From positions 1-51,396 of the forward strand of contig JACKQL020000206.1 of NCBI GenBank assembly GCA_018296165.2: DNA of 51,396 nt, read 5' to 3'. A program made the position numbers and the translations under genes. The notes beneath the pieces are model-generated. The model worked only from the letters and a program-made list of their open reading frames with translations. It did no database searches and had not been told where the DNA came from. The stretch is from Termitomyces sp. T153. Its lineage: Eukaryota; Basidiomycota; Agaricomycetes; Agaricales; Lyophyllaceae. Below, piece after piece: positions 13,810-39,368 of this stretch (positions within the stretch are counted from its first letter, which is position 1; the number at the start of each line of letters is the position of its first letter).

Positions 13810-15454
13810 TGTAAAATTTGTATGCTTCACAAAGATGTTTGCACTTTCTCTCTCCTGGAGCTGGGCTCTCAATGGGCCTGCAATGTATGTGATGAGTGCA
13901 ATGACCAGCACTTGCAATGCTTGTTTTGCATAGAGTGGGAGAGGGAGTTTTCTCAAAGGCAAGAATTACAGGCAGGGAGTTCAGGTGCAGTTTAGGGGTT
14001 GGGATAAGAGTGGGATCAGGGCCAGGGTAGTCTCAGGTCAGGGGTTGTTGCTCTACAGGCCCAGGTTAAGGTGGTCATTACTCATTGGACATTGGATTGG
14101 ACCATGGCCCCTTGTTCACCTTGGAGTTTGTGTCAGACAGAGGTCAGGAAGGAGGACAATAAGCTAGCAAGGAACAATTTGCCTGTCCCCATGCCCATAG
14201 ACAAAAGCAAGGAGCATGAAGTTCCTCTCTTCATTCCTAAGAGTTCCTTGGAAATGTTCAACATGGAGTCTGAGGAGTTTCCTTTGCATTATCTGTGGTT
14301 CAAGTTGGAGGAGGAGGAGCCCAGTGGTTCTGAGTTTGCAGAGGCAAACAAGGAGAAGCATTGTGCTGAGTTGCCAAGTGGTCTTAATCATGCCTAGATG
14401 GTGCCACTGTCCTTGCCTTTTACTCAGGCATTCTTGCATCTGACTGGTTTCCCCCTAGCCTTCAGCCCATTGCCTAAGAATGCCCAGCTCCATCAGCAAT
14501 CAGAGCTAGTCCAAGGGCAGGTGTCCCAGCTCCAAGATGAAAACAAGCAGCTCTTGCTGCACCATTCTGAGCTGGTCCATGAGTTACAGGTGCATGACAA
14601 GTTGGTCTGGGAGTTGGAGGAGGCCATAGTGAGTTAAGGAGAGCAGTTGGCAGAGTGCCAGCAGCAGTTTTATGTACAGTCATTGGAGGTAATCTGGTGG
14701 TGTACCCTGGCAGAAGAGTGGCAGCACAAGATGCAGGCATGGTTGACAAACCTCCAGGAGGTGGGTGTGCAGGCAGTTTCAGTGGCCTAGGGTGGTGGAG
14801 TTCAGGTGGTGGGGCCCATTGATCAGGTTAAGGGCAGTTTGCAGAGTGACATGGTGCAAGAGTGTATGCAAGACAAGGGTTCACTGGGATGGCAAGGCAA
14901 CTCATAATAGTTGGAGGACCAGCAAAAGTAGCCCATCAGCAGGAGTGGCTGATCACCCATGTATTGGAGCTCCAAGTCCAGTCCCATAGTGAGCAATCAT
15001 TGTGCTTTTCTCATATTGGAGAGTACTGATTGGGGTAGAGTGGTTCTGGCATTATTGGACCCTCCTGGATGGGGTTGCATCTGTGGGTTTGTTTGTTCAG
15101 AATGGGCTCCAGTCAATTTTCCTGCAATACTATCTTTCCAGGCAGGTGAGGGCAGGCTTGGACCAGCTTAACCAAGTGGAAGAGAGCCACCAGGCCCTGT
15201 CATTCTCTCAGAATGCTCACTTGAAGCAGCAGGCATCCAATGTGATTGAGCCATTGCCTATCCAGGTAGAGGCATTGATGTAGCTGTGCAAAGAGATGTC
15301 TCATTTGTTCAGTTGCAGTTGAAAACAGCAGGCACCTTTGCCAAGTTCAGTTGATGTATTGGTGTTGTGGGCTGGCTCAAAGGTGATCAACTTGACAGAG
15401 GACCAATCAGAAGCAGAGGAGCAACAGAAGCAGTCAAGCTCGGACTCATTCTGA
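13810..15454 (+). pseudogene. Antisense six-cysteine / coiled-coil gene, copy in element E
   Basis: The cluster at 13810-13920 reads CKICMLHKDVC, 15 residues, CDECNDQHLQC: spacing identical to the copies at 26217 and 28766. Downstream, with stops and frame changes, come an acidic region (14160-14400), a coiled coil near 14480-14630 (LVQGQVSQLQDENKQLLLHH; ELVHELQVHDKLVWELEEA), and a decayed C-terminal domain near 15040-15110 (HYWTLLDGVASVGLFVQNGL) aligning with REHRVLLDGASAAFASIQDG of element A. It lies downstream of the integrase/chromodomain on the opposite strand, as in element C. It is dead, but the cysteines survive. Function is unknown. Confidence 0.65.
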
Positions 15455-15549
15455 AAGTATTATAGCAGCTTCCTACCCTGTACATATACTCTTTCTTGAT
15501 GCAACATTGATATCTTTCCTACAGTCTCAGCTGCTTGTTGCAAACTGGG

Positions 15550-15830
15550 GGTTATGTGGGGGAGTGAGGCATTGAGGGTGCATCAGAAACATTGGAAGTG
15601 CTGGAGGTGTTGGGGCAGGTGATGGTATTGAGGCACTAGGAAAATTGGGGTGTGTTGGGAGTGCCAGAATTAGTGATGGCATTAGGGTGCTGGGGCCTTG
15701 GGGATACTAGGCTGGTGATGGTATCAGGATGTTGGGGGTGTCAGGGAAGTGATGGCATCAGGAGTGTTGGAGGATTTGGAGGGGGCTATCAGAGATGCCT
15801 GGAGGGGTGATGGCATTGTTGAGGCATGGG
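15550..15830 (+). repeat. Degenerate minisatellite
   Basis: Units of roughly 30-60 bp built on GGTGATGGCATCAGG-like and GGTGTTGGGG-like motifs recur about six times with variation. This is probably decayed non-coding sequence between the antisense gene and the following transposon end. Confidence 0.4.
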
Positions 15831-16129
15831 GGTAGATAAGATAGGGCAGGGCTCAGGAGGCAAATCAGAGGGTTTGAAGGAAGAAGAAATAGCATTGTGA
15901 GGGTTGGCTCAGAGCTCTGGGGGCTGAAAGAGTGGTAGTAGTAGAGGTAGTTAGTGAGTAAATAGGTAATGTATGGGGGCTTGCAGCATCAGAGCAGAGT
16001 AGAGTGCAAAAGAAAAAAGGAGAAAAAGAAAAATGGGAGGGGGGTACATACAAGCAGAAGTTGAATCCCTCATAAATCTAAGGGATGGGAGCTAAGCCCA
16101 CTATTGTCCTTGTAGGTCAGGGGATCAGA

Positions 16130-18006
16130 GATCCCAGGGCTTGCAAGGGAAGAACCTGTGAAAGTCCTGGAGAGTGTTCAGAGCTCCTCCAAGATTGTCA
16201 AGGGGTTCCCATGTATTGTCTTCTAGGCTGTATCCTACTCACCAGACTGGATAATGCACCTTCCCTTGGTGGAGCCTGAAATTGAGGATCTTGTCAACTT
16301 TGTATTGGTCCTCTCCAATAGTCTCCACTGAAGGGGGAGGTTTGATCTTGTGTTTGTGGAAGGTGTCTGGAAAGTGTTGTTTGAGGAGTTGGACATGCAA
16401 AATGGGGTGGAGTCCCTTCATTTCCAGAGGAAGCTAGAGCTCATAGGCATGTAAAGAGACCTTTCAGAAAATTATGAATGGGCCTAGGTGCTTGTAGTTG
16501 AGTTTGATCAAGGGTTGCCAGATCTTGATGTGCCATTGGTCCAGCCAGACCAGAGAGCCTATGGGCCAGTCCAGGATAGGGTTCTACTTGGATTTGGCAT
16601 GTTCCCAGTAGGCTTTGTTGGCAATGTTGATTTTCTGGCAGAGATTCTCCTGGAGTGTTCAGAGATTGTAAGCAACTTTGTGGGCAGCATGGGAGGGAAT
16701 ATTGCAGAGGGTGATGGAGAGACAGGAGTTGTATCCTTTGTTTGTAAAGAACAGAGAGACTCTAGTGGTGGAGTGGGATGAATTATTGTATGTGAACTTG
16801 GAAATGGAGAGCTCAGCACACCAGTTGTTCTGGAGGTAGTTTACATAGATTTAGAGGTATTGCTCCAAGGACTGGTTGGTGTGCTTGGTCTGCCTGTCAG
16901 TTTTGGAGTGATAAGCAGTGGAGAGATTGAATCAGATGTTGAGGGCTCAACAAGGGGACTGCTAGAACTTAGAGACAAAAAGGGCACCTCAGCTGGAGAT
17001 GATGTTGTTAGGGAGCCCATGCTTTGTAAAGATGTGGGTAACAAATAGGCAGGCAAATTCTGGTGCATTGTTGGTTGTGTGGCAAGGAATAAAGACTGCC
17101 TGCTTTGTGAGGTGGAAAATGACTACTAGGATGGCATTCTATCCATCAGAGTCCAGGAGTTTAATGATGTAGTCCATGGAGATTGAAGACCAGGGTCTCT
17201 GTTTAATGGGGAGGGCAAAAAGGGTTGGTGGCAAGGGGCTTTAGCACACAGGCAAGATTTGCAGGAGCAGATATACTGAGTGACATCCCTCTTGAGACCT
17301 GGCCAGAAATACATATAATTTGCAGAGTTTTGCAGATTCCAGGGTGCCCTCAGAGTTTTTGGTTATAGTGCCATTGGAAGACATCTAGGCATAGTTGAGG
17401 CAGGTCTGGTACATATATCAGGCTGTGGCAAAGCAGAAGGGGGTTGTTGAGAGAGAGGGTAAAGGGATGTGGGGTCTCCTTGGAGTCAGTCAGGGCTGTT
17501 GGGTTGGAGCTAGGAGAAGGTGTAGGCTGGTTTGCAGGATTACAGGAGTCATTATTTTTAAAGTATTCATTCTTTGGGGTGCTTTGGATCTACTTGAGGA
17601 GTCCTTCTTTGTCAAGGAGCAGGGCAGAGTGGAGGTGTTCTGGAAAAATCATGACTTGTTTTTTCAGAGTGTTCCATTCTCCTTCAAAAGTCTTCTGAGG
17701 GTACACATTGTATTTTCAAGTGAGGGCATCAGGTTTTGCTTCAAAACATCTAGGGTGGTAGCAGATGATGAAGTCATATTCAGAGAGGGTTTTGGACCAC
17801 TGGGCCTAGTGGCAGCTGAGTTGCTTTGTTGTAGTGAAGTACTGCAGATTTTTGTGGTTGGAATAGACTTGGATTTGGTGTCATGCACTCTTGAAGTATG
17901 TGTGCCACTGCTTGGAAGCCTTAACAATGGCCAGGAGTTCCTTGTTGTAAATATTGTAGTTGAGTTCTATGGCAATTATTGAGCATGTGTAGAAGGCAAT
18001 GGGTCA
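16130..18006 (-). pseudogene. Element E RNase H, integrase and chromodomain
   Basis: On the minus strand the RNase H tail starts at 18006 (IAFYT, then ELNYNIYNKELLAIVKA), continues through HQIQVYSNHKNLQYFTTTKQ, and reaches the integrase zinc region (GHPGICKTLQ). The integrase core follows (WSSISMDYIIKLLDSDG; FTKHGLPNNIISS; LSTAYHSKTDRQTKHTNQSL). The chromodomain-type end is EDQYKVDKILNFRLHQGKV then EDNTWEPLDNL. Stops and frame changes are frequent. In the DDE triad the first Asp remains (MDYI) while the second lies in an altered block (IISS for IVSD). This is a dead copy. Confidence 0.75.
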
Positions 18007-21178: not shown

Positions 21179-21259
21179 AGCTTACAATTCACACTCTGTA
21201 AGTCAAAACCAGTTGTTAGGTCTGTCTACAAAGTATGAAGTAAGCTGCTGCCTTACATA

Positions 21260-21640
21260 AGTAATTGTATTGTACTTTTAGGGATAGTGTTACATGATGC
21301 TATCTGTATAATTAAATAATAATAGAACTAATATAGCAAGGTAGTGCAAGTAATGGGTGCTCCATTACATGCCTTCCTTTTGAGTCTGTTAATGGACTCA
21401 CTTCCAAAGACAAATGAAGTAAATGAAAGAGAAGGGGTGGGATACAGCATCCCACCCAATAGTGTGCACCAGAATTTGGGTACAAATTCCTATGTTTATC
21501 TGTAGTAGAATCAACAATTCTACATGGACAGAATACATCTCAGCATGCTGTCCAACTGTGCTGAGTGAGAAATGTGGGCTACTAGGGCCCATGTGTATTG
21601 GTCATGTTTATGTGAGCTTCAAAAGTAGCTCACCCAGCTC
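21260..21640. other. AT-rich stretch without genes, possible LTR remnant of element D
   Basis: No coding signal is visible. GTAATGGGTGCTCCATTAC (21349-21367) is a near-perfect inverted repeat with a short loop. The position just beyond the last D-element open frame suits a decayed 3' LTR, but no partner copy was found to the right of 48150. Confidence 0.3.
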
Positions 21641-24600: not shown

Positions 24601-24709
24601 TACCTGTTTCCTGAGAGGGGGCTGATGGTCCCCCACACCCTCTGCCTGTTCTGCCCTATTACAGGGGAACTTCATCTCCCTATGCTGGCAACTGCTGCAT
24701 TGCCACTGC
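21640..24709 (-). pseudogene. Element D downstream open frame, left part
   Basis: One minus-strand frame runs from 24385 to about 22178 with scattered stops, then changes frame toward 21639. Blocks include a Ser/Pro/Gln-rich N-terminal part (near 24385-23600; MLAEVIEIDDKGSES), an acidic segment (ASDLGSDNDDDVPTSKQ), a Trp-rich block (HPNFYWLPMTNAVFIGGKAV) and MPMNPKQIQLILKLIWIGR followed by QIHAALLLQEFHQISFYMAP. Similar open frames are, in my recollection, common beside gypsy elements in mushroom-forming fungi, without an assigned role. The N-terminal end lies at 46149-45875 across the insertion. Confidence 0.5.
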
Positions 24710-25848
24710 TGTCAGGTTCTGCTGACCATGGGGGCTCAGCTACACTGGGCAAGTCCTTAATAGGTGGATGTGATTCCCTGCACTGACAACTGGGCATTCA
24801 GAGGTGTCCCAAACTCTGGGGACTTGTGAGGACAGTTGGTGGAGATTGATCTGAGCAAGTCCAGGGAGGTCTGGAGGAGTAGGGGACAAGCTGTGGGGAA
24901 GGGGGATGGGCTTGGCGAGGTTCAAGCACAAGTCCATATGTGAGTATTGCAGGTGCAGAGGAGGTGGAGGCTACACAAGTGATGGAAGTGCAGCTGGAGT
25001 TTGATGGAGGATCAATGGAGGTTGATAGAGTTTGGAGCCAAGCATGTAGCGAGGTCTGGAGTTGGTTAAAGAGTGTCTGGGATTCATAATTGTAATTGCA
25101 GGGTTCACAAAGGCATTAAGGTTGGGAAAGATAGGAACATGATGGATGGGACAGATCAAACAAGACAAAATGGAGTCAAACAAAATGAGACGGAGTCAAG
25201 ACAAGATGGAGATGAGAATTAGAATAGATTCAGGTGGAGATACAAAACAATAATGAAAATGATAATGGAATAGAGACGAGACAAGACCGGGAGACTGAGA
25301 GTAAGAAAATGAGACATGGAACACAAAACACAAGAGAGAAACAATCAGACCATAGGTAACATTAAGCAATATCAAGACTAGAGTATGAAGAGCTACTCTA
25401 CATCTTATATACTGACTACTGGAGAGCTGTCAGCTGTGGCAGCGGGGCTTGGCAGAGCTTAATGGAGTCAATGGGTGTTGGTTATGATCAGAGGGCAGGC
25501 CATGTTGATATGTTGATGGGATCAATTAGTGACATAGGCCATTCTGAGGTCGTCGTAATACTCCAAAGTAAGTCGGAGGAACCAGGGTGTCAAGTTGATG
25601 ACATGTAATGGGGTCAGGCATGGCAGGGGAATGGTCTCAGGGGCTCAGGAGATCCAGGGGAAGCATTGCTGACTGCGGGAAAGATGTCAGAGTTGGCCAG
25701 GGGGCCGTCAGAGTTAGCCGAGGATGCGTCGGAGTTAGCTGGAGTAGGCGCAGAGCACTGTGGGAGTTTGGCAAGGTGTCAGGGGAGGTTCTGGGGGGGT
25801 GGGGGGTCATTGGGTGATGTGCAGGGGTCCAGGGAATGGGTTGTGACA
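24710..25848 (-). repeat. 3' LTR of the outer element
   Basis: The plus strand reads TGTCAGGTTCTGCTGACC ... TTGTGACA. The TATA box (minus TATATAA) is at 25405-25411 and the predicted start at 25379, 32 nt apart. It is CpG-depleted relative to the LTRs of elements A and C, and is the partner of 44727-45874. Confidence 0.9.
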
Positions 25849-26066: not shown

Positions 26067-27097
26067 ATGTCCTCCTCCAATCACTCAGCTCCATGGTTTT
26101 CCGATGTGGACAAGGTGGCATGGGCTCAGGGCCCCCCAATGCTGGAGTGGTGTTTGAACCAAGCCCCAGTAGTTTTCAAGCCCTTTTGGTCATGTTTACT
26201 GACTGTTTGGTTATAGTGTACCCTTTGTGCTTGGCAGGGCAAGCTGTGCGAATTTGATGGGCCCTCCATGGGCTTGCAACATTACACCTCTGTGTGCCTT
26301 CCATGCCGTGCAAGGCACGAGAAGTGCTCAATTTCGTTGAAGTGGCAGGCAGTGTGCGTTGCTGCAGAGCAGGGGTGGGATGAGGGTTGGGTGTGGGGGC
26401 AACTGGGTGAGGCATGGAAGGCCAGGGTGTTGGGGGAGGGGGGTGCGGGGCAACCTGCAGGAAAGGTGGGACCTCTGTAGGGTGGGCAGAGAGAGGGAGT
26501 GCTGGTAGTGGTGGATAAGGAGAAACAGAGGGCCTCCCCACTGTTGGAGGTGGGGCCCAGCAAGAGGCTGTGGGGACACAAGTCAATGGCGGGGCCTCCA
26601 GGGCCTCACTTTTACTCTTTTACCTTGGGCGTGCCATTGGAACAGGCTTCAAGTTCCCCAGAGCCCCTGCCTTCAATCATGGAGGTTTTCCTATGTCAGC
26701 AGGTGGAGGCTTTGATGATGGCATTGACAGCATGAGAGGGGGAGCTCCAACAGGTAAGGGAGGATCTGGACATGACACAGAGGGAGAAGGAGGTGCTGCA
26801 GTAGGAGTGGGACACCTTGGTGTGAGTGGCAATGGAGCAGGCATTGGAGGTGTGGGGTTTGTGGGAGCATCTGATGCAGTGGGAGGTACGACCCATGGAG
26901 GTGGTGGAGGGGCAGCAGGTGGCATTGGAGGGTGGTTTGTTGTGGGCGGAGCTGGAGGCAGTGGGGCGGAGGGAGGATTGGTTGGCCAGTGAGGCTGCCT
27001 TGGGCCATGTGGGGGACCTTCATAAGTATCTCCCCAGTTCTCCATTCTGTTGCTAATGAATCGTTTTTGGTTAGGCTGGGTGCAGGAGCACTGAGTT
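26067..27097 (+). pseudogene. Antisense six-cysteine / coiled-coil gene of the outer element, first part
   Basis: Exon 1 is 26067-26168 (MSSSNHSAPWF..., ending WCLNQAP). A 48-nt intron follows (GTAGTT...GTTATAG). Exon 2 (26217-27021) opens with the cluster CTLCAWQGKLC, 15 residues, CLPCRARHEKC (26217-26327). It continues in one frame, with two stops, through a basic stretch (QRASPLLEVGPSKRLWGHK) and a coiled-coil region to REDWLASEAALGHVGDLH. The second donor has decayed to ATAAGT, while its acceptor (GGTTAG) survives. Exon 3 (27075-27097: WVQEH, then a stop) is cut by element C and resumes at 39078. Lengths keep the frame and the phases 0 and 1 seen in element C. Confidence 0.7.
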
Positions 27098-28089
27098 TGT
27101 CAGGTTCCGCTGACGACAGGGGCTCAGTACACTGGCGAGTCCTTACTAGGTGGATGCGATGTCCTGCGCTTATAACCAGGCATCCGGAGTTGGAGCGGAG
27201 GTGGGGAAAGCTTGTGAGGGGGTCCCTAGGGAGAGCGGCCCGAGCAAGTCCTGAGTGATTCAGAGGGGTCTAAGACCGAAGGTACTGGTCGTTGACCCAG
27301 GGCGGGTGTCAGGGCTAGTTAGTGGGCGCACAAATGGATTGCGGGATAGGCGGAGGCTTCTCGGTTGATGGGGGTGGGGTCGGAGCTGGATGGGGGGTTA
27401 CCGGGGCTGGGTGGGTTTCGGGGCCGAGCAGGTAGTGAGGTCCAGAGTTGTTGTTAAGAATGTTCAGGTCGTGGCGCGTGCGTGGAGTTCATACTGACGT
27501 AGGGAGCAAGGGAACTTCAGAGGAACAAAGGAAATATGTACAGTTGAGACAAGACGGGGACGAGACGAGACTGAGAAAAGATAGATTCGGAACCTAAAAA
27601 CAGAAATAGAGACGAGACCAGAGACAAAACATAGGAAACTGGTAAATCTAATATCAAGACTAAAGTTTGAGGAGTTATTCTATGACTTATATACCAACTA
27701 CTGACTACTGGGTGCCTCCTGAGGGCGGCGGATATGATGGCGGGGGTCGATGGAGCTGTGCGGAGTCGATGGGTGTCGGGTACAATCCAAGGTCGGGCTG
27801 TGGCGGTATTCTGATGGGATCAGTTGGGGGCGTGGCCGCTCCGGGGACGTCGTGACACTCCGGGACGGGTCAGGTAAACTAGGGTAGGGGGTCGGGGACG
27901 TATGACGTGGCCAGGAACGGTGGGGGAAGGTTTCAGGGGGGTGTTGATGGCTATGGAGAGGGAGTTGCCGTTGGGGTTTGCCGGAGAAGCGTCGGAGTTG
28001 TCCAGTGTGGGCGGGGTTCAGGGGAGTTAGATGGGAAATCGGGAGGGGTTGGGAGCAGTGTCTAGGGAGCTAGGGAGCGGGTCATGACA
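27098..28089 (-). repeat. 3' LTR of element C
   Basis: This 992-bp LTR has plus-strand ends TGTCAGGTTCC ... GGTCATGACA. TATA (minus) is at 27687-27693 and the predicted start at 27661. The sequence TAATATCAAGACT (27649-27661) is the R-region counterpart of the primer-binding site at 38058-38070. Confidence 0.92.
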
Positions 28090-28103: not shown

Positions 28104-28302
28104 GCGTCGAGACTCTTGAGACATGGGGAGTGAGTCGGGGATCAGTAGGGCATGGGAATTGAAGTTGATCAATATTGATCAAACTGCAGCGAGTGGCGAC
28201 AGCGTGGGGAAGGAAGTCAAGGTGCGGCCGCCGTTCGTCAGGGGCCCCTTCTTAAGTTATTAAAAGGGGTGGACGCACTCGGGAGTCCGCCAGCTTGTTG
28301 CA

Positions 28303-29998
28303 ATGTCTTCTTCAGCTTATTCTCCCACAGCATCTAGGTCGCCGTCCCTGCCTTCCCAGCCGTCGTCCTCTGAAGATTCAGAGGGTCACCAAGATCGCCG
28401 TCGGGTTGAGGCGATGTACCGTAGTCATGAGTGCGGTCCGTTCCATGTACCCCAGAACACTGATTGTCCCTTCGCAGAGTTGTCCGCGGCCGTGGCTGGT
28501 CCCTCAGGGCCACTGTCTGGTGCGGATGCGACGTAGCCCCCAGTGGGCGTGGTCACTTCTACGCGTTCCAAGTCTGGCATTCGCCCGGGGGTGGTCCGGC
28601 TTGTCCCAGAGGGTTCGAGGGTGGTACAGGCGGAGGTGACGCCGGAGCAGTTTGCCGAGGCGGTGGGTCGGGCGAGGGGTCCCCCCACCCTCAAGTGGTG
28701 TCAGGCGGCGGCCCCGGTGAGTGGCCACTTAGCTTCATGTTTCCTGGACCAACATGCCCCTGCAGTGTGCGTCTTGTACCCGATGAGGGGAGCAGTGTGA
28801 GTTTGAGGAACCTGCATTGGGGGTACAGCGGGACACGTCGGTGTGCCTTCCGTGCCATTTGCGGCACGAGAAGTGCTCCGTCACCCTGAGTTGGCGGGCC
28901 ATTTGTGTCACGGCGGAGCAAGGGTGGGATCAAGGTTGGGTCGCAGTGCAGCTGGAGGAAGGGCGGAAGGGCAGGGTGTCGGGGAGGGGCTCCAGGGCTG
29001 GGGAAGGGGAACGGGTTAGCGTGCCTGTCATGAAGGTGGGCCCCCCGCGGGGTGGATGGAGGGAGGGGGCCCCTTCCATGCAGGAGAAAGGGAAACGGAG
29101 AGCGTCCCCTTCACCTGAGGCGGGTTCCAGTAAGCGGGCGCGGGGCAAGCAGGTGATGGGGGGCCCCCCTGGTTCCGCGGTGTATTTTCCTACATCCAGA
29201 GCCCCCGTTGAGCAGTCCGCGGATAGGTCGTGGTTGGTTGCGGAGGCCTATCTGCAGCGTCGGGTAGAGGGCTTGGAACGGTTGTTGGTCACACGCAAGG
29301 AGGAGATTCAGGGGGTACGGGAGGAGAGGGACGGGGCTTGACGGGAGTTGGACAGGGTTCAGAGGGAATGGGACCTGGCGCGGAAAGACAAGGACATCGC
29401 TGGCGGGACTGCCGCAGAGCGGTTATCTCATCTGCAGGAGTTGGAGGTGCGGACGGTGCATTTGCAGGCGTGGGTGGAGGCGGCGGAGGTGGCGACGCAG
29501 CAGGCAGGAGGCTCAGGGGTGCGGGAGACCCAGCAGGGTTCCAGCGCTGAGGAAGTCCGGGCAGCGGCGGAGAGGGCGCGGCGGTGGGAGGAATGGCTCG
29601 CCAACGAGGTGGCCTCAGGCCAGCGAGGAGTGCTTCGTGAGTGGTTTCCCCGCTTTCTTCTCCTAAGCGCTGATTCGGGTTCCACAGACTGGGCCAGGAA
29701 GCATCGCATCCTTCTTGACGGAGCGTCGACAGTGCTGGGGTCCATCCATGATGGGTTGGCGAGGATGCCCGGGGACCTTCCGCCAGAGTTGGGTCAAGGG
29801 GTTACACAGATGGGGCGTCTGTTGGCAGGGCATCGGCGGAGGGCGACGGCAGATCCTGGGGCGTGGTGGGAGATAGCGATGGACGTGGGAGAACCGCTCC
29901 CCGGGCAACCCAAGGTTCTGGCGGCAGTAGTAGCACAGTTGGAGGTGTTCATGGTGGGAAGGGTAGCAGGGTTAGGGTCAGAGGAGGAGGGAGAGTGA
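28303..29998 (+). pseudogene. Antisense six-cysteine / coiled-coil gene of element C
   Basis: Exons are 28303-28716, 28766-29636 and 29688-29998, about 530 codons. Introns are 49 nt (GTGAGT...CTGCAG, phase 0) and 51 nt (GTGAGT...TCCACAG, phase 1), at the same places as in the outer copy and, for the second, in element A. Exon 2 opens with CASCTR(stop)GEQC, 15 residues, CLPCHLRHEKC, the Zn(II)2Cys6 pattern with a long linker. Then come a basic stretch (GKRRASPSPEAGSSKRARGK), a coiled coil (about 29190-29560) and the conserved end (HWARKHRILLDGAS; GAWWEIAMDVGEPLPG). Stops at 28534 (TAG), 28784 (TGA) and 29339 (TGA) are each explained by one C-to-T change. DNA binding is inferred from the cysteine pattern only. 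Confidence 0.7.
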
Positions 29999-30227
29999 GG
30001 GGAATTTGGACCCCGTCGTTGACTTGTTCCCTGCCCCTTCTTGTTTGAGTATATACCTGTACACTGCTTGTTCCTATACAGTCTTTGGTCCTTCTGCTGA
30101 GTGTGGGAAGTTTCAGATAGAGCGAGGAGAGGAGTAAGTGGAAACACATAGGAGAGTACTGGTGGGAGTTGAATCCCCGGTGAACCCAGAGGCGGGGGTT
30201 ACGCCCACTATTGCCATCTGTGTTGGG

Positions 30228-31619
30228 TCAGTCCCGGGGGTTCCGGGGCTTGGCAGGATTTTGTTGGTGGAAGTCCCGGAGTTTGTCGGGGGCTCTGTTG
30301 AGGTTCTGTTGGGGTTCCCACGTGTCGTCCTCAGGTCCATAGCCCTTCCAGCAGACCAAGTACTGGAGCCGGCCGCGAACTACCCGGGAGTCAAGGATCT
30401 CATCGACCTTGTAGTGATACTCATCCTCAACTTCGACGGGGGGTGGTCGGCTGGGGTGTTGGCCGGGGAAGGGGTCTGGAGCGTGCCTTTCAAGGAGTCA
30501 AACGTGGAACACAGGGTGGAGGCCCTTCAGGCCCAGAGGCAGGTCGAGCTTGTAAGCGTGGGTGGAGACCTTCCGGAGGATCTTGAATGGGCCGAGGCAT
30601 TTGTGGTTGAGTTTGATGGAAGGCCTCCAGGTCTTAAGATTTCGTCGGTCGAGCCAGACCAAGGTGCCAGAGGGCCAGTAGGGGGTCAGCTTGCGATGGG
30701 CATCGGTGTGCTTGGAGTAGGCTTGGTTGGCGGTGTCGATCTCGTCCCGGAGGAATTGGTGGAGGGATCGGAGGTCCTTGGCGACTTCGTGGGCAATGTG
30801 GGAGGGGATGTCTTTGAGGGACAGCGTGAGTCAAGGATTGTAGCCCTTGTTGGCGTAAAAGGGGGAAACTCCGGTGGTGGAGTGAGGCATGTTGTTGTAG
30901 GTGAATTCGGCGAGGGGAAGCTCCGCGCGCCAGTCATTCTGTAAATAGTTAACGTAGAGGCAAAGATACTGTTCTAACATCTGGTTTACGCGCTCGGTTT
31001 GCCCGTCGGTTTCCGGGTGGTAGGCGGTAGAGAGGTTGGTTTTGATCTCGAGCACCTTGCACAGCGATTGCCAGAAATGAGATACGAATAGGGGTCCATG
31101 GTCGGAGACGATGTCATTGGGAAGTCCGTGTTTGGAGAATACATGTTCTAGAAATAGCTTGGCGAAATCCGGGGCGGTGTCAGTGGTGTGGCAGGGAATA
31201 AAGAGGGCTTGCTTGGTAAGGCAGCAGATGACAACAAGGATTGCATCGAAACCTTTGGAGTCGGGGAGTTCGATGATATGATCCATCGATATTGAAGACC
31301 AGGGGCGGCGACTGACAGGGAGGGGTTTCAGTAATCTGTGGGGGCGATGGCAGGGTACTTTGGCCCGTAGGCAGGGTTTGCAGGCTCTTATGTATCACGT
31401 GACGTCCTTCTTCATTCTGAGCCAAAAATAAGTCCGGGAGATGAGTTGAAGGGTCTTACGAATTCCTGGGTGCCCCCGGAGTTTGTGATCATGGTGTTGC
31501 CAGAGTATGTCGAGGCGAATGGACTTGTGGTCCGGGGCATAGATTCGTCCATTCCGGAGCAGCAGGCAGTGGTCTGGGGATAGCAAAAAGGGGTTGTCTA
31601 TGCTTGACTCGTTGGGGTT
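30228..31619 (-). pseudogene. Element C pol, distal part: integrase and chromodomain
   Basis: This is the continuation of pol after the solo LTR; removing the LTR and one AACCC copy keeps the frame. Blocks in order: the zinc-binding region (HDHKLRGHPGIRKTLQ ... CKPC), the integrase core with the D, D, E positions (SMDHIIELPDSKGFDA; HGLPNDIVSDHGPLF; YHPETDGQTERVNQMLEQYL), a GPF/Y-type region (KLNHKCLGPFKILRKVS), and a chromodomain near the end ([27 protein letters not shown]). It ends at TGA 30230-30228. Two in-frame stops, at KKDVT(stop)YIRA and GYNP(stop)LTLS, fit CGA to TGA. The chromodomain would direct integration by reading histone marks, as in other chromoviruses. Confidence 0.9.
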
Positions 31620-32765
31620 TGTCAGGTTCCGCTGACCCCGGGGGCTCAGCTGCACTGGGCGAGTCCTTACTAGGCGGGCGTGATCCCCTTGCACTGGTAC
31701 CTGAACACTCAAAGACGTTCCGGGCCATGGTGGCTCGTGCGGGTAGTTGGGGGGATGTGATCCAGACAGATCCGGGGAGGTCCAGAGAAGTCAGATTGTG
31801 AGGAAACGAGACGGTCTTGGCGGGGTTCAGGCAGAAGGCCGTACGGGAGATTTGTGGAAGCAAGGGAGTAGGTGGCTGTGTGATCAATGGGAATGGAGCT
31901 GGGGTTTGATGGGAGATCATTTGGAGCTGATGGAGTCCGGGACCGAGCGAAGAGCGAGGTTCAGACCTGGTAAAGGAGTGTCGGGGTTCGTAATCGTGAT
32001 CGCGGAGTTCGTGAGGTTGTTAAGGTTGATGAAGACTTGGGCACACTGATTGGACGGAGTCACTGAGACAGCGTCAGACGAAATGGGATGGTGTTGATAT
32101 GGGACAAGAGTAGATTCGAATAGAGATACGAAACAATAACAAGAACGATAACGAAATGGAGACGAGACAAGACCGGGAGACTGAGATGAGACCGGGAGAC
32201 TGAGATAAGACCGGGAGACTGAGATAAGAAAACAAGACACGAAACACGAAAAGGAAACAATCAGACCATAGGTAACATTAAGCAATATCAAGACTAGGGT
32301 ACGAAGAGCTACTCGATGACTTATATACTGACTACCGGAGGACTTTGGGGTACGTCGGCTGTGGCAGCAGGGCTTGGCGGAGCTCGACGGAGGGGGCGGG
32401 TGTTGGTTGTGATCGAGGATCGTGCCGCGCTGATACATTGATGGGATCATTGGAGAACGCGGGTTGCCCTGAGGTTGTCGTGATACTCCGGAATAGGTCA
32501 GGGTGTTTAGTTGATGATGGGGTGGCGAAGATCAGGAACAGTGGGGGTGGTTCTCGGGGTTCGGGAGGCCCAGGGTAAGTGTCAGTGGCTGCGGGGTAGG
32601 CACCGAAGTTGGCCAGGGGGCCGTCGGAGTTAGCCGGGGAGGCGTCGGAGTTAGCCGAAGTAGGCGCGGGGCATGGGCGGAAGTTTGGCGGAGCGTTGGG
32701 GGTCCCTTTGGGGGTTCGGGGGGTTGATGGACGATGTGCGGGGTTTCGGGGAACGGGTCATGACA
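31620..32765 (-). repeat. Solo LTR inserted in element C pol
   Basis: This 1146-bp LTR (plus TGTCAGGTTCC ... TCATGACA) is flanked by GGGTT on both sides (31615-31619 and 32766-32770). No internal sequence remains, so it arose by LTR-LTR recombination. It belongs to the element A LTR subfamily, not that of element C. TATA (minus) is at 32321-32327 and the predicted start at 32295. Confidence 0.93.
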
Positions 32766-35547
32766 GGGTTGTTGCGGGGGTTGTGCTGGTTGAAGAAGGG
32801 GTCCGGGGGTGAATTCCTGATTTGCTGGAGGATTCCTTCTTCGTTTAAAATCAGCACGGCATGTAGATGTTTGGGTGGGATTACCACTCGATGGTTGAAT
32901 GCATTTTGTTCGGTTTTGAACGATTTCTTCAGATACACATCGGGTCTCCGAGTGAGGGCGTTGGGCTTTGCACCAAGTCGCCCGGGGCGGTAGTGAATGG
33001 TAAAATCGTACTCCAAAAGGGTTTCGGACCATCGAGCCTGGCGGCAGCTGAGCTGTTTTGTGGTCGTGAAATATTGCAGGTTGTTGTGATCGGAGTAGAC
33101 TTGGATGCGGTGTGGAGACCCTTCAAGGTAGGCCCGCCACTGACGAAAGGCTTCGACGATCACGAGGAGTTCCTTGTCGTAAATGTCGTAGTTGAGTTCC
33201 ACTGGGATCATTGATTGGGTGTAGAAGGCGACGGGGCGGAGATCCTTGCCCCCCGAGTTTGACTGGGAGAGTATCCCGGCAATAGCGTAGTCGGAGGCGT
33301 CACATTCGAGCACAATCGGTAGGGAGGGGTCGAAATGGCGGAGGACCGGAGCGGAGGTGAAGGCCTTCTTCAGGAGAAGGAATACGCTCTGGCACTTGCT
33401 GTCCCAATTCCAAGGGGTGTCCTTCCATGTGAGCCGGTTGAGGGGTTTGGTGATTCCGGAGTAGTTGTCAATGAAGCGGTGATAGAAGTTAGCAAACCCC
33501 AAGAATGACTGTACCTCCTTGACATTCTGCAGGGAGGGCCAGTTGAGTATTGCGTCGACCTTGGTGGGGTCCATGCGCACACTGTCAGGGGTGACAATGA
33601 CCCCGAGATATTCGACTTCCGCTGTGTGGAATGAGCACTTTTCGGGTTTAGCATGAAGGTGATACTCTCGGAGTCGTTTCAGGACACGGCGGACGTGCTG
33701 CGAATGCTCTGCTGGCGAATTTGAGTAGATCAGGATATTGTCCAAATATACGATGACAAAGACGTTGTTCATGTTGTGGAAGATGTCATTCATGAAGTAC
33801 TGGAAGGTGGCGGGGGAGTTAGTCATTCTGAAGGGCATTACAAGATACTCAAAGAGGCCGTAGCAGGTGCGAAAGGCGGTCTTCCATTCATGTCCCGGGG
33901 CGATCCGGACGTTGTTGTAGCCGGAACAAAGGTCAATTTTCATGTAAATCTTGGCGCTGCGAAGGCAATCAACAAGGTCTCCGATTAAGGGGAGGGGGTA
34001 CCGGTTCTTCTTGGTGACTTTGTTGAGTCCCCGATAATCCACACAGAGTCGGAGGGATCCGTCTTTTTTCTTGGCAAACAGAACCGGAGCGCCAGCCGTG
34101 GAGATCGAGGGATGTATGAAACCTTTGCTGAGCATGTCGTTGAGGTATTCCTTCAGGGCCCGGAGCTCGATTTCGGACATGTTGTAGATCTTGCCAAATG
34201 GGGGTGAGGTGCCTTCTTCGAGGTTGATCTGGTGGTCGTAGGAGTGGTGCGGAGGGAGTTCCTTGGCACTTCCTTCGGAGAACATGTCAGCGAACTTATG
34301 ATACTCCGGGGGAACTACTTCGGATAGGATCTGTTCCTCTGTCTTCTTTTCTGGCGTGGTAGTCCCTGTGCGGAGGTATTCCTCCAGTAGGGCTGGCGTG
34401 ACTTGCAACTGGAAGGCGGGGGTGCCTTCTCGTAGGAGGCGTGTGAAGGGGACGGCGCCAATGATTTTAATGTCGAGGTTTCTGGAGTCGACGGGGTTGG
34501 GTACCGTAGGTGTAGCAGTCGGGTCCGGGGTGGTGTCGGGGTCAGGGATAGACTGGAAGCGGAGGTGGATGGCGGCCGCTAAGCTTGCTTCGGGACCGGG
34601 GAATTGCATGGTGAGGTTCTTCCAGTTGATGTCAGGATTGACGTCTCGCAGCCATGGGAGTCCGAGCACAATCGGGGTCGACGGGGGTAGTTGGGTGACA
34701 AGGAGTCGGGTCTGGAACTGCAGGTCATTATCGAGGGTGAGAGTGTTGTTGTGGTACTGCGTGATTCTTGTTGTGGCGGGGTTCCTGTTGAAGAGTTGGA
34801 GCTCGAGGGGTTTGTCGAGGTCGTTGCATTGGAGGTCGAGTTGGTTGCTGATGAAGACACCAGAGGCGCCGCTGTCTACGAGGGTGGGGAGTACCTTGAG
34901 CGAGCTGCCAAGTTGGACATAGATGATGAACGATTGTGCAGACCTAGAGCGAAGTTGCAGTGGGGTCCAGGGTTGGTTGATCGTGGTCTCGGAGCTCTCG
35001 GAGGGGGGTGAGACATGGAAGGGTACCAGTCCAGAGTCAGTGGGGTTGTCCCGGTCGAGGCGTAGGGTGAGACTGGGCCAATCGACACGGGGATTGGTGG
35101 AGCGGAGCCATGAGAATCCTAAGACAACAGGGGCAGAGGGGTGTAATTTTGTGACGAGTAGTCGGAGTTCTTGCTGTTGTCCGTCGGCAAAGGTCAGGGT
35201 CGTTTCTAGGCAATGAGTGATGTCTCCCGCTGGGGTAGAGTCTCCGTCAAAGAGTTTGAGGGGGATCGGGGTGGGGAGGCGGCGGAGGGGTTGTGGGGCA
35301 AGCGCTGCCAGGGATTCATCAACAAAGTTATTGGTGGCGCCGCTGTCGACTAGTGTGGGGACGGGTTTGTCAGTGAAGGGGAGAGTGGTGCGGAGGAGGA
35401 GGTTTGTGGAGGAGTGGGAGGGGAGGTGTGCTGGGGGGTTATCCGGGGCGAGTATCATTGTGCGGAGGAGTGTGGCTGGGGCAGAGAAGACGTTGGGATA
35501 TGGTCCACGGTCTAGTGCGTCTTCTAGACCTAAACTGCCAACTCATT
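32766..35547 (-). pseudogene. Element C pol, proximal part: duplicated protease, reverse transcriptase, RNase H
   Basis: The frame is open from about 35547 to the solo LTR. Counting from Met at 35458, protease domain 1 has TLVDSGATNNF (Asp38) and VVLGFSWLRSTNPRVDW. Domain 2 has TLVDSGASGVF (Asp195) and IVLGLPWLRDVNPDINW. The reverse transcriptase follows: GSLRLCVDYRGLNKVT, YMKIDLCSGYNNVRIAPGHE, GLFEYLVMPFRMTNSPATF. Its active box is YLDN (33737-33748) where YLDD is usual. RNase H follows (LECDASDYAIAGILSQ; YDIYDKELLVIVEAF; VYSDHNNLQYF). The N-terminal end overlaps gag's end in another frame. The copy is inactive because of the solo LTR and possibly the Asp-to-Asn change. Confidence 0.9.
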
Positions 35548-38038
35548 TTCCGTGAACTGGTAGTTACAGTCTTCTCCGTCGATCATCCACATGGCGCATC
35601 CCATCACCTGTTGTTTAGGGCAACTGCGAATAAAGTGTCCCTGCTCACCACATAGAATGCATGCGCCCTCCTTCCATCGTTTCTCCTGCATCTCCTCCAG
35701 CATGTTGATCCACTGGCTGTCCTGGATTCTGTTTGTGCATAGGGCTTCCTGATCATTGGCGGGGTCTGGGATGTCGTCGCAATTGTTGGGGTTGGTATCC
35801 AGGGGTACTGGGGTGTCATGGAGGTCGGCAGCATTGAGCTGGGCGGGTGGGCGCTGCCCCGGGGGTCAGTTGGTGTTGGGGACTCCTCAGCCTGGAGGGA
35901 AGCGGGGTGCAGGGTTAGCAGGGTTAGCGGGGATTGAGGATCGGATGCCATTGGTTGCTCCTGCCTGCCAGTTGGTGTTACCGGAGGTGTTCCAAGAGGT
36001 CCGGGGCGCCGTGTTTTCGCTGCGGTCTTCCCAGTAACGTTGGTTGACCTGGGTAACGAGTGCCTTGTACCCATTGTAGGTGGTTTGTTTGGGCGCAAGG
36101 CGAAGGATGTCCTTGATCCATTGGGGTAGGGCACGACGGAGGGCAAACCGGAGGGCGTTGTAATTCCAGCCGGTCTCGTAGGCCTCTTGTTTGAATTGTA
36201 CAATGAAGGTCATGAAGCGTTTGTTGTTGCGCATTCGGAGGTTGAAGAGATTTTCCTCTGCCTCTGCTACAGTGTCAAAGACGCCAAACTTACTCGAGAA
36301 CTCTTGGGTGAAAGCGAGCCAATTGGAGAGTACGGGATTGTTTGGGTCGAACCGGAGTAGCGCGGTGTAGTGGTCGAAGGCGATGCCCTGTAAGTATGAT
36401 GCGGCAAAGGCTACTCGTGAGCTCTCAAGCTGAAAAGTGATGGGCTTAGCTTGAAACATAGTTAAACACTGGGTCAGGAAGATTCACCACTTCTGAGGGT
36501 CGCGGCCAGTGAAGGGTTCGGGCTTCTGGATGTCGAGCTTACCCTCCCAGGCCAGTGCGTCATGGGTATCATCCTGTGAATTTTGAGTTCGAGGTGGGGG
36601 TCCAGCATTGTAGTAGTAGTAGTAGTGATTTCCATTTCCGCACTGGGGGGGAAAGTTGTCCATCGCTGGGCCCCATCCTCCCGGGGGTCCGCCATTGGGT
36701 GGTCCTCCACCGGGGTTTTGACCCACACTACCCAGGGCGGGTCCTGGGGCCCATCAAGGAGGAGGGGGTCCTCCGGGGTTCAGGGGTGCAAAATAGTTGG
36801 CGTCGGTGGGGGGATTAAGCATCGGGGTGGGCGGGGGACGAGAGGGGTTGGCAGAAAAAGGGGGTTGGGGCGCCCCAGGGCCCATGGGCTGTCGCGGGGG
36901 AACTGGGGCGTTGGGATGGGGCGGGGGGGCATTGCTATGAGGGGCGCGGAGATCAAAGTGGGGGGGTCGGTCTCGTTGGGGCCCGTTGCATGGGGAGTGT
37001 TCGTTGGCGGGGTTGCCCGGCTCATTGATATAGGAGAGGGTCCTGTTGTCATTGTCGACGCGTAGGGGCGGTCGTTGGGAACGGAGTTCAGGGGCGGCAG
37101 GTTGATCCCAGGTTTGGAAGGCGCTGAGCACGGAGCTGGCCCAGGGCCGGGCGGAGAGAGCCAAGGTGTGGGCAGTGGGTTGGTCGAACAACCCCCCCGC
37201 GGGGTTGAGGTTCCTCAAGATGCTGGAGGCCACATTGAGTTCTTCCTGCTGGTGGGGAACGGAGGATGGGGCTTTGTTTTGTGTCCCAACAGGTTCCTCG
37301 CATTGCACGTGGAAGGAGCGAGCAGGATCCAGAGGGTCTTCGAAGGAGCGGAGGTTCGGGCTAGTGTGGATTTCTTCGACCAAGGTGCGGAGCTCATTCC
37401 GTAAGTTGTCGTCGATGCCCAGGGTGCTTTGCGTATTCTCCAGGAGGTTCCCTTGCAGGTAGCGTTTGTGGAAGTCGAGGAGTCGATCCGCCCAGACCTC
37501 TGGAGTTGCGGAGGCGTCGGGGTAGCCTAGGTTGGTGAGGAGGGTGCAGGTACGCCTTGCAAATTCTGCGGGGGACAGGCGGAGGAAGCGGAGGACTTTG
37601 TTGCATTGCTGGGCGTAGGCTTTGATCCTTTGCTGCCTAGGAGAAGGAGGGGTTTGAGCGGCGAATGGTGGGCGGGGGGGGAATAGTTATCCATGGCCTC
37701 TGGAGGGACTGGGGCTGCAGAGGGGATTGGGTACGCATAGTAATGGGCAGGGGGGAGGTAGGTGGGTTGGGGGGGGCTGTGGAGTATCCTCCGGGGTTGA
37801 TACGGGGGTTGTTGCCATCGGTGTGGAATGCAGGAGGGCGGCGCCAGCCCGGGGGTATTCCCTGGCTGATGGAGGGGGCGTAGAATGCCTGGTTGGGGTC
37901 AGGGGTCCAATGACGGGGCACGTATTGGTCTGCAAAGGGACCCGGGTAGAAGGGGGCATAGGAATTTTCCAGTATGGGCCGGCCGTAGGCATCGGTTGGG
38001 TAACCGACGGGGTTGTATGCGGGGTTAAACACAGACAT
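35520..38038 (-). pseudogene. Element C gag with CCHC zinc knuckle
   Basis: The start MSVFNPAYNPVGYPTD at 38038 lies 33 nt after the primer-binding site. A Pro-rich N-terminal part (to about 37640) continues in another frame from about 37650 (RIKAYAQQCNKVLRFLRLSP), suggesting a frameshift near the C-run at 37673. Then come a Pro-rich spacer, the capsid-like region (LDIQKPEPFTGRDPQKW; ESSRVAFAASYLQGIAFDHY; WLAFTQEFSSKFGVFDT) and the zinc knuckle CILCGEQGHFIRSC (about 35619-35660). It ends ENELAV followed by TAG. Several in-frame TGA codons fit CGA to TGA. The pol frame begins within the last few codons, at -1 relative to gag. Confidence 0.85.
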
Positions 38039-38057
38039 CGAGAACGGGGTAAGGGGG

Positions 38058-38070
38058 AGTCTTGATATTA
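38058..38070 (-). other. Self-priming primer-binding site of element C
   Basis: TAATATCAAGACT on the minus strand lies immediately after the 5' LTR's TGACA end. It is the exact reverse complement of AGTCTTGATATTA inside the LTR, located 32 nt after TATATAA, i.e. the predicted 5' end of the RNA. This is the Tf1/sushi self-priming arrangement, in place of a tRNA primer. Confidence 0.8.
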
Positions 38071-39072
38071 TGTCAGGTTCCGCTGACGACGGGGGCTCAG
38101 TACACTGGCGAGTCCTTACTAGGTGGACGCGATGTCCTGCGCTTATAACCAGGCATCTGGAGTTGGAGCAGAGGTGGGGAAAGCTTGCGAGGGGGTCCCT
38201 AGGGAGAGCGGCCCGAGCAAGTCCTGAGTGATTCAGAGGGGTCTAAGACCAAAGGTACTGGTCGTTGACCCAGGGCGGGTGTCAGGGCTAGTTAGTGGGC
38301 ACACAAATGGATTGCGGGATAGGCGGAGGCTTCTCGGTTGATGGGGGCGGGGTCGGAGCTGGACAGGGGGTTACTGGGGCTGGGTGGGTTCCAGGGCTGG
38401 GTGGGTTCCGGGGCTGAGTGGGTAGCGAGGTCCGGAGTTGTCATTAAGAATGTTCAGGTCATGGCGCGTGCGCGGAGTTCATACTGACATAGGGAGCAAG
38501 GGAACTTCAGAGGAACAAAGGAAATATGTACAGTTGAGACGAGACGGGGATGAGACGAGACTGAGAAAAGATAGATTCGGAACCTAAAAACAGAAATAGA
38601 GACGAGACCAGAGACAAAACATAGGAAACCGGTAAATATAATATCAAGACTAAAGTTTGAGGAGTTATTCTATGACTTATATACCGACTACTGGGTGCCT
38701 CCCGAGGGCAGCGGATATGATGGCGGGGGTCGACGGAGCTGTGCGGAGTCGACGGGTGTCGGGTACAATCCAAGGTCAGGCCATGGCGGTATTCTGATGG
38801 GATCAGTTGGGGGCGTGGCCACTCTGGGGACATCGTGATACTCCGGGACGGGACGGGTAAACTAGGGTAGGGGGTCGGGGACGTATGACGTGGCCAGGAA
38901 CGGTGGGGGAAGGTTTCAGGGGGGTGTTGATGGCTATGGAGAGGGAGTTGCCATCGGGGTTTGCCGGAGAAGCATCGGAGTTGTCCAGTGTGGGCGGGGT
39001 TCAGGGGAGTTAGACAGGAAATCGGGAGGGGTTGGGAGCAGTGTCTAGGGAGCTAGGAAGCGGGTCGTGACA
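38071..39072 (-). repeat. 5' LTR of element C
   Basis: This 1002-bp LTR is paired with 27098-28089; the two differ mainly by C/T or G/A substitutions and a short duplication (CCAGGGCTGGGTGGGTT near 38390). TATA (minus) is at 38677-38683 and the predicted start at 38651. Confidence 0.92.
38651..38683 (-). promoter_or_regulatory. Promoter in the 5' LTR of element C
   Basis: Minus-strand TATATAA begins at 38683 and AGTCTTGATATTA at 38651, 32 nt apart. This predicts where the element's RNA begins, upstream of gag. Confidence 0.7.
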
Positions 39073-39077
39073 GAGTT

Positions 39078-39368
39078 CTCCTGAACAGTGCCTCTGTGGC
39101 ACTGGTGTCAATCCAAGATGGGTTGACACAGATGTCTGTGGATCACCCTCCGGAGCTTCAGCAGGAGATGGCAAGGATGGGGAGGTTGCTGGTGGGGCAT
39201 TGGTGGTGCAATGCGGTGGCCCCAGGGTTGTGGTGGGAGGTGGCAGTGGATGCGGGGGAGGCCTTGCTGGGGTTGGTGGAGGTTCTAGTGGTGGTGCGGG
39301 CCCAAATGGAGATTGATTTGGGGATTGGGGAGGAAGGGAGGGGGTTTCCCAAGGGGGGGAGGGGTTGA
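39078..39368 (+). pseudogene. Antisense gene of the outer element, remainder of exon 3
   Basis: After the GAGTT duplication the frame resumes with SASVALVSIQDGLTQ, PPELQQEMARMGRLLVGHW and GLWWEVAVDAGEALLGLVEV, and ends with TGA at 39366. It aligns with the C-terminal domains of the copies in elements A and C. It shows that element C landed inside this gene. Confidence 0.75.

What the first reader, a model, noticed from the sequence alone, without database searches (positions are those of the whole stretch)
13810..39368. Antisense, spliced gene carried between pol and the 3' LTR by several related LTR retrotransposons
Four elements (A, E, outer, C) have a gene on the strand opposite to their polypurine tract, primer-binding site and gag-pol. 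It lies in the same place, with related start (MSS in A, the outer element and C), basic stretch, coiled coil and C-terminal domain. The copies are diverged, yet structure and exon layout persist, which argues for selection on a real gene rather than chance. Known background: additional and antisense ORFs are reported in some plant LTR elements. I do not recognise a description of this fungal one.
Basis: partly seen in the sequence, partly recalled or inferred. Interest (0 to 1): 0.92.

Follow-up and report, generated by a model that had tools for sequence, protein, structure and literature searches.

The report
Antisense zinc-cluster gene in fungal retrotransposons
In a fungus that is likely a termite-farmed Termitomyces, several families of jumping elements carry on their reverse strand an extra gene with predicted introns that bears the marks of natural selection even in elements without their own copying genes, and its protein is predicted to work in the nucleus, likely as a switch for the element itself.

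Summary
A, C and the outer element carry a homologous multi-exon gene on the strand opposite to the element, next to the polypurine tract/3' LTR; E carries a decayed, very divergent homologue. Corrections: A and outer have no gag-pol, and the outer gene is broken by stops and by C's insertion into its last exon. The frame is not a by-product of sense coding: A against a sister subfamily (A2; the one element examined also lacks gag-pol) gives dN/dS 0.21-0.24, frames with another wobble position about 1-2. C, outer and E encode C-x2-C-x6-C-x15-C-x2-C-x6-C, a sub-threshold match to the fungal Zn(2)Cys(6) cluster with its halves in swapped order; then come a basic stretch, a predicted coiled coil and a conserved C-terminal domain. 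A lost the cluster. All listed database relatives are Termitomyces. Antisense extra genes are known from plant Gypsy elements and, in fungi, Botrytis Boty (brtn); eight searches showed no description of this one. Most likely it is a self-encoded nuclear regulator, loosely like HBZ/APH of HTLV. Transcription, splicing, DNA binding and function are untested.

The parts
2666..2783 (-). A antisense gene, exon 1 (start codon; 118 nt, phase 1)
2616..2665 (-). A intron 1, GTAAGT...TAG, 50 nt
   Evidence: GT-AG kept in 21 of 21 A copies
2010..2615 (-). A exon 2: basic stretch KRRASPPSGAGPSKRPRGR and predicted coiled coil; zinc cluster deleted in frame
1955..2009 (-). A intron 2, GTGAGT...TAG, 55 nt
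   Evidence: GT-AG kept in 20 of 21 copies
1653..1954 (-). A exon 3: conserved C-terminal domain and stop
2784..2980 (-). Putative promoter/leader of the A antisense gene between PPT and ATG: AATATTGATCAA block (2902-2913) and TTTAAAG box (about 2819-2825)
   Evidence: alignment of A, B, C, outer, positions; promoter function inferred
2981..2990 (+). A polypurine tract GAAAGGGGGG (sense strand)
2994..4157 (+). A 3' LTR
13810..13920 (+). E antisense gene: zinc-cluster codons C-x2-C-x6-C-x15-C-x2-C-x6-C
13765..13809 (+). E intron remnant before the zinc cluster (donor ATGAGT, TGCTAAC branch-like, AG), same place as in B, C and outer
14989..15038 (+). E last intron, GTGAGC...TACTGAT...TAG, same place as in A, B, C
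15039..15456 (+). E C-terminal exon (WFWHYWTLLDG...), with in-frame stops; end approximate
26067..27097 (+). Outer element antisense gene, 5' part with zinc cluster; in-frame stops
39078..39368 (+). Outer element antisense gene, rest of the last exon beyond the C insertion; end approximate
24710..25848 (-). Outer element 3' LTR (5' LTR about 44727-45902; TSD ACTGC)
28303..28420 (+). C antisense gene exon 1 (118 nt)
28478..28716 (+). C exon 2
28766..29636 (+). C exon 3: zinc cluster (codons 28766-28876, one stop in the window copy), basic stretch, predicted coiled coil
29688..29998 (+). C exon 4: C-terminal domain and stop
28165..28182 (.). Perfect 18-bp palindrome TTGATCAATATTGATCAA, 120 bp before the C antisense start codon
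   Evidence: 144 places in the genome, 0 for the control
27098..28089 (-). C 3' LTR (5' LTR 38071-39072; TSD GAGTT)
30228..37686 (-). C gag-pol region (Retrotrans_gag, protease, RVT_1, RNase H, H2C2, rve; chromodomain-like tail read by eye, stop 30228-30230), interrupted by an A-type LTR at 31620-32765; upper limit approximate

Best explanation
These Ty3/Gypsy-type elements carry, on the strand opposite to the element and next to the polypurine tract and 3' LTR, a conserved gene with predicted introns that bears the mark of purifying selection, and whose protein is likely a nuclear, coiled-coil, zinc-cluster regulator of the elements' own transcription. Shown: position, orientation, intron places with splice consensus, cysteine spacing, selection between lineages, presence in elements without gag-pol. 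Inferred: the gene is transcribed from its own promoter in the conserved block between PPT and start codon; its introns survive retrotransposition because the sense genomic RNA does not present them to the spliceosome; the full product (C, outer, E) enters the nucleus, dimerises through the coiled coil and binds DNA by a Zn(2)Cys(6)-like cluster, most simply at the element's own promoter/LTR region, to set its activity (repression slightly favoured); the A product, which lost the cluster, would act by pairing with full-length relatives or host partners, as APH-2/3/4 of HTLV act without the bZIP of HBZ.
For: Selection: dN/dS 0.214-0.243 A vs A2 on a nucleotide alignment; 0.289-0.454 between families; gene frame has the lowest pN/pS of six frames in 3 of 3 family pairs. 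A family, shared variants N:S 4:7 against 0.665:0.311 expected (one-sided P 0.03). Gene present in A, A2 and outer, whose examined elements lack gag-pol; all 20 fetched A copies sit beside an LTR. Zinc cluster: spacing in C, outer and E and 45 of 209 retrieved proteins; Zn_clus is hit in 9 of 10 C-type proteins and is the top Pfam family in 8, all below cut-off, E 0.0022 to 1.6. Coiled coil: predicted helix 127-196, pLDDT 87-97 up to residue 190; heptads equalled in 44 and 32 of 5000 shuffles. Promoter block shared by A, B, C, outer. Precedents: Grande gene23 nuclear with own promoter (PMC7264820, passages); Retand TRP28 predicted to bind DNA (PMC11963269, passages); HBZ and APH-3/4 repress the 5' LTR (PMC10186651, passages).
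Against: No RNA, localisation or binding data. Zn_clus never reaches its cut-off of 21 bits (best 18.5), and two proteins with the full cysteine pattern (P0101, P0163) gave no Zn_clus hit. The models are poor overall (mean pLDDT 52.8 and 63.0) and Foldseek gave nothing at E 0.001 or below. B copies show no within-family constraint (exon divergence 0.170, intron 0.142); C gives only 0.72/0.71 of neutral (P 0.017/0.067), and its mirror frame 0.79/0.69. A lacks the presumed DNA-binding part, so a regulator role for it needs a partner. No binding site was identified; the palindrome's link to the protein is a guess.
Confidence: 0.55

Rival explanations
1. A replication accessory: the antisense protein is an RNA/cDNA-binding or nuclear-import helper (coiled coil, basic stretch, cysteines) used in particles or pre-integration complexes.
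For: Basic stretch and cysteines; non-autonomous A needs trans help and shares LTR ends and the stretch after the 5' LTR with C; PMC7264820 discusses accessory and nuclear-import roles.
Against: Two C-x2-C-x6-C triads are not the CCHC knuckle of gag (general knowledge); A lost the cysteines yet stays constrained.
Confidence: 0.18
2. The antisense RNA matters more than the protein: convergent transcription makes dsRNA that silences or tunes the family.
For: Tail-to-tail arrangement with pol; antisense RNA control is discussed for plant elements.
Against: Codon-level constraint, conserved intron places and cysteine spacing are not needed for an RNA function.
Confidence: 0.1
3. A captured host gene that is now a passenger, intact only because amplification was recent, or that serves the host rather than the element.
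For: Introns point to a DNA-level capture; the listed A copies are 99-100% alike; B is decaying.
Against: dN/dS 0.21-0.24 between A and A2 at synonymous divergence pS 0.28-0.33; all 20 fetched A copies sit beside an LTR. No search for LTR-free host copies was made.
Confidence: 0.12
4. Shadow frame: the antisense frame is open only because the sense strand codes in a wobble-aligned frame.
For: A 370-410 codon sense frame overlaps the gene in A; the mirror frame also has low pN/pS.
Against: Between families and A-A2 the mirror frame scores worse (pN/pS 0.52/0.73/0.79 against 0.41/0.55/0.65) and holds 8, 18, 9 stops against 1, 1, 0; 3-5 against 1-2 counting the real stop. A sense frame cannot follow introns of different lengths.
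Confidence: 0.02

Closest known systems
[quoted passage not shown]
   Same: Orientation, position, presence in most copies; own promoter and nuclear product reported for gene23 (PMC7264820, passages and section 5)
   Different: No family in common seen here (no Pfam hit at cut-off; no direct sequence comparison made); fungus instead of plant; introns and zinc cluster here
Retand TRP28 antisense proteins (PF04195)
   Same: Antisense, POL-3'LTR region, predicted DNA binding (PMC11963269, passages)
   Different: PF04195 not among the Pfam hits of the 19 antisense-gene proteins scanned
Boty brtn of Botrytis cinerea (Zhao et al. 2011, not read; seen as cited in PMC7264820 and PMC8365987)
   Same: Fungal LTR element with an additional antisense gene between pol and 3' LTR
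HBZ of HTLV-1 and APH-2/3/4 of HTLV-2/3/4
   Same: Spliced antisense gene at the 3' end; HBZ lowers 5' LTR expression; APH-3/4 lack the bZIP yet repress the 5' LTR (PMC10186651, passages)
   Different: No bZIP here; zinc cluster and long predicted coiled coil instead; no evidence of common descent
Fungal Zn(2)Cys(6) transcription factors (PF00172)
   Same: Six cysteines in two C-x2-C-x6-C triads, followed by a predicted coiled coil
   Different: Below Pfam cut-off; triad order swapped; carried by a mobile element

Membership tests
Antisense aORF between pol and 3' LTR (aORF-3R) | Opposite strand to gag-pol, between pol end and 3' LTR | tested here: met
   C: gene stop 29998, pol stop 30228-30230, 3' LTR 27098-28089; A and outer: same place, but no pol found
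Antisense aORF between pol and 3' LTR (aORF-3R) | Present in most copies and conserved like an element protein | tested here: inconclusive
   C gene 0.72/0.71 of neutral against pol 3' end 0.80/0.55 in the same 7 copies; share of all elements that carry the gene not measured
Antisense aORF between pol and 3' LTR (aORF-3R) | Antisense transcription | not testable with these tools
   no RNA data
Zn(2)Cys(6) cluster family (PF00172) | C-x2-C-x6-C-xn-C-x2-C-x6-8-C (motif recalled) | tested here: met
   C, outer and E with n=15; 45 of 209 retrieved proteins, n=15 in 44 and 10 in 1
Zn(2)Cys(6) cluster family (PF00172) | Score above Pfam's cut-off, whole profile in order | tested here: not met
   best 18.5 against 21 bits; in 13 of 13 sub-threshold hits the best stretch covers one triad only: first triad on profile 13-36 (9 hits), second on 2-15 (4 hits)
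Zn(2)Cys(6) cluster family (PF00172) | Binds two zinc ions and DNA | not testable with these tools
   needs protein
HBZ (HTLV-1) | bZIP domain | tested here: not met
   no bZIP among Pfam hits of 19 proteins
Non-autonomous LTR element (A) | LTR pair, target duplication, PPT, no gag-pol | tested here: met
   about 6.06 kb, LTR about 1.16 kb; 5-bp duplications in 4 of 4; no gag, RT, integrase or chromodomain match in copy L009 except a reading-frame overlap in the LTR
Chromovirus (C element) | Gypsy gag-pol with chromodomain at the end | tested here: inconclusive
   gag, protease, RT, RNase H, H2C2, rve by Pfam; chromodomain read by eye, not scanned; label recalled

The most novel reading that the evidence does not exclude
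An order-swapped Zn(2)Cys(6) zinc cluster heads a self-encoded transcription factor that these retrotransposons carry on their reverse strand; non-autonomous elements have thrown away gag-pol but keep this regulator as their only gene, and the A lineage has further shed its DNA-binding half to make a coiled-coil spoiler or mimic that manipulates the autonomous elements it depends on.
Probability: 0.25. Interest if true: 0.88.

Novelty: new variant of a known kind. Interest (0 to 1): 0.66.

Why it matters
Antisense extra genes of LTR elements have been known for many years without an assigned function. Here is a fungal case with at least 190 places in one 72-Mb genome (150 A/A2-type, 40 C, both capped lists), conserved introns, a recognisable if swapped DNA-binding motif, and a natural deletion series: full protein with gag-pol (C), full-type protein without gag-pol (outer), cluster-less protein without gag-pol (A, A2). 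A protein gene kept under selection in elements that encode no replication enzymes suggests that the product benefits the carrier element or its family. It is also a natural counterpart of the antisense-intron markers used to detect retrotransposition: introns can survive because they face the wrong way for the genomic RNA.

Tried and rejected
Shadow-frame explanation: rejected by frame comparison and stops. Sense ORFs of A elsewhere (1202-1510 and 1957-2586 in element coordinates): pN/pS 1.35 and 0.75 against A2, no coding signal; in that control two non-coding frames fell to 0.44, so single ratios near 0.5 are not evidence. Intron-less copies: junction patterns with up to 3 mismatches gave 0 hits for A intron 2 and 0 for the C zinc intron; other junctions were not tried, and copies diverged by more than about 12% would be missed. 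Relatives outside Termitomyces: none among the listed 120 of 175, 120 of 171 and 68 of 68 hits; the unlisted 55 and 51 were not seen, and only word-sharing relatives are reachable. Solved structures: 0 matches at E 1. Folding: poor models, no fold match. Within-B selection test: no constraint. Flank-versus-CDS polymorphism in A is biased because copies were ranked by similarity over the gene; only CDS versus introns (39/1026 vs 10/105, P 0.019) and N:S are used. Literature: eight answered searches showed no description of this gene in their listings.
Full report
What was checked. The window is the whole contig C206 of a 72.4-Mb fungal genome.

Anatomy. In A the sense strand is plus (PPT 2981-2990, 3' LTR 2994-4157) and the gene lies on minus at 2783-1653, three exons, 341 codons, introns of 50 and 55 nt with GT-AG ends. 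Annotation of another Termitomyces strain holds a product of the same 341 residues (P0003, strain J132, 85% identical over 100%). In C the gene runs on plus, 28303-29998, four exons, 512 codons, introns 57, 49 and 51 nt; exon 1 is 118 nt in both A and C. It ends 229 bp before the stop codon of pol, which runs the other way. C has gag, protease, RT, RNase H, H2C2 and integrase matches, and a chromodomain-like tail read by eye. The outer element's gene starts at 26067, has a deletion between exon 1 and the zinc exon, several stops, and is split by C inside its last exon with the target duplication GAGTT. E, very divergent and decayed, keeps the zinc cluster at 13810-13920, the intron in front of it (donor changed to AT; the same in its only close relative L057), the last intron and the start of the C-terminal domain. 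'B' below is the family found in the genome with P0071 (L016-L027); the outer gene resembles it.

Correction to the finding. A and the outer element do not have gag-pol. Full A copies are about 6.06 kb, two LTRs of about 1.16 kb and 3.7 kb inside, with 5-bp target duplications in 4 of 4 examined. C's gag, protease-RT, integrase and chromodomain sequences find nothing at E 0.01 in one A copy (L009), in one A2 element (C31) or in the outer pieces, except an overlap of the RT reading frame with the LTR in A. A2 is collinear with A over LTR and inside in pieces of 78-90% identity, so both most likely descend from one non-autonomous ancestor. Whether B copies other than outer lack gag-pol was not tested.

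Is the frame selected? (i) A against three A2 copies, nucleotide alignment, no length difference except an in-frame 54-nt block: dN/dS 0.214, 0.238, 0.243; the four frames with another wobble position 0.99-1.99; the mirror frame with the same wobble 0.246, 0.279, 0.334 but with 5, 4 and 3 stops. The three A2 copies were chosen's list of 150 among those without stops in exon 2; two of the three nevertheless have a stop in the last exon and one a changed donor. (ii) Between families: dN/dS A-B 0.289, B-C 0.314, A-C 0.454; pN/pS 0.41, 0.55, 0.65 in the gene frame, 0.91-1.14 in the four others, 0.52, 0.73, 0.79 in the mirror frame with 8, 18 and 9 stops against 1, 1 and 0 (the alignment was made on the protein, which favours the gene frame somewhat). 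(iii) Within A, 21 copies: shared variants N:S 4:7 against 0.665:0.311 expected under the singleton spectrum (one-sided P 0.03), singletons 18:10, about as expected for decay after insertion; 0 stops, one 1-bp insertion (L043), one lost donor (L050), so 19 of 21 intact; these are among the best 40 of 550 first-look candidates, not a random sample, and 20 of the 40 were fetched with the flanks. (iv) Within C, 7 copies after dropping L031, which is nearly identical to L030: N/S 0.72 of neutral for singletons (P 0.017) and 0.71 for shared (P 0.067), against 0.80 (P 0.12) and 0.55 (P 0.006) for the pol 3' end in the same copies; the mirror frame gives 0.79 and 0.69, so this test alone cannot tell the strands apart. 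Mean divergence in C is similar in exons (0.0625), introns (0.0717) and pol (0.0652). No gap in 1539 coding nt in 8 copies; 4 of 8 have no stop and 3 of 8 also keep all splice ends. (v) Within B, 11 copies (L025 dropped as partial): exon divergence 0.170, intron 0.142, no constraint. So selection is clear between lineages, weak within C, absent among old B copies, as expected for dead copies.

What the protein looks like. N-terminal MSS; in C, outer, E and many database relatives C-x2-C-x6-C-x15-C-x2-C-x6-C; a conserved basic stretch of the form KRRASPxxxAGPSKRxxG (read as a nuclear localisation signal from general knowledge, not predicted by a program); a long predicted helix with heptad periodicity; a conserved C-terminal domain. 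Pfam's Zn_clus is found in 9 of 10 C-type proteins scanned and is the top family in 8, always below the cut-off; over there are 13 such hits in 19 antisense-gene proteins, several of which lack the cluster. In all 13 the best stretch holds one triad only: the first triad lies on the later part of the profile (13-36) in 9, the second triad (CLPCRSRHEKC type) on its beginning (2-15) in 4, hence 'order-swapped'; that these profile parts are the two halves of the cluster is general knowledge. In A and A2 an in-frame deletion removed the cluster. The overall fold is unknown.

Control region. Between PPT and start codon A, B, C and outer share an AATATTGATCAA block and an AT-rich box (TTTAAAG or TTAAAAG) about 36 bp before the ATG in A and C. 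In the window the block occurs only there; E lacks it. CAATATTGATCAANCYGCAG has 395 exact places in the genome, the reversed control none; the perfect 18-bp palindrome of C has 144. Common descent of the copies alone could explain this; that it is a promoter or the protein's own site is inference.

Introns. Two exon-junction patterns found no intron-less copy. This fits elements copied through the sense RNA, in which the antisense introns are not spliceable.

Mechanism and rivals. I commit to a self-encoded nuclear regulator (0.55), with a replication accessory (0.18), host use or passenger (0.12), antisense RNA (0.10) and shadow frame (0.02) as rivals. The steps from promoter to splicing to nuclear entry to DNA binding to LTR control are inferred.

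Known background. Antisense additional ORFs at this place are described for Grande, RIRE2, Retand, PvRetro13 and Boty (PMC7264820, passages and section 5; PMC11963269, passages; PMC8365987, passages). PMC10186651 (passages) describes HBZ and APH. The Boty paper itself was not read. Eight answered literature searches showed no description of this Termitomyces gene in their listings; subscription journals and repeat libraries were not searched. Verdict: new variant of a known kind.

Noticed in passing
27093-27097 and 39073-39077: C inserted into the last exon of the outer element's antisense gene (target duplication GAGTT).
   Followed up: yes
31620-32765 and about 40536-41752: Two LTR-only stretches of the A type, one inside C's pol between RNase H and integrase, one inside the outer element.
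   Followed up: partly
about 1389-1482, 30164-30257, 16055-16120: A block just past the antisense gene (after the pol end) is conserved in A, B, C and even E with no known role; possibly a shared terminator, packaging or export signal.
   Followed up: no
49176-51230: Helitron: Helitron_like_N in two adjoining frames, near the contig end.
   Followed up: partly
4107-4775 (-): Reverse transcriptase fragment (RVT_1; LINE-like by eye) abutting the end of A's LTR.
   Followed up: partly
46319-46807 (-): Tail of another Gypsy-like element with a Tf2-1-like SH3 domain.
   Followed up: partly
C copies (window and L029, L030, L032-L035), gene, flanks and pol 3' end: Singleton changes are dominated by C to T / G to A at CpG: 252 of the 382 in the eight commonest classes, which points to methylation-driven decay of copies.
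   Followed up: partly
window about 38059-38070 and L009 about 5301-5312: A and C share the stretch TAATATCAAGAC right after the 5' LTR, where a primer-binding site should lie; it was not matched to a tRNA, so self-priming is possible.
   Followed up: no
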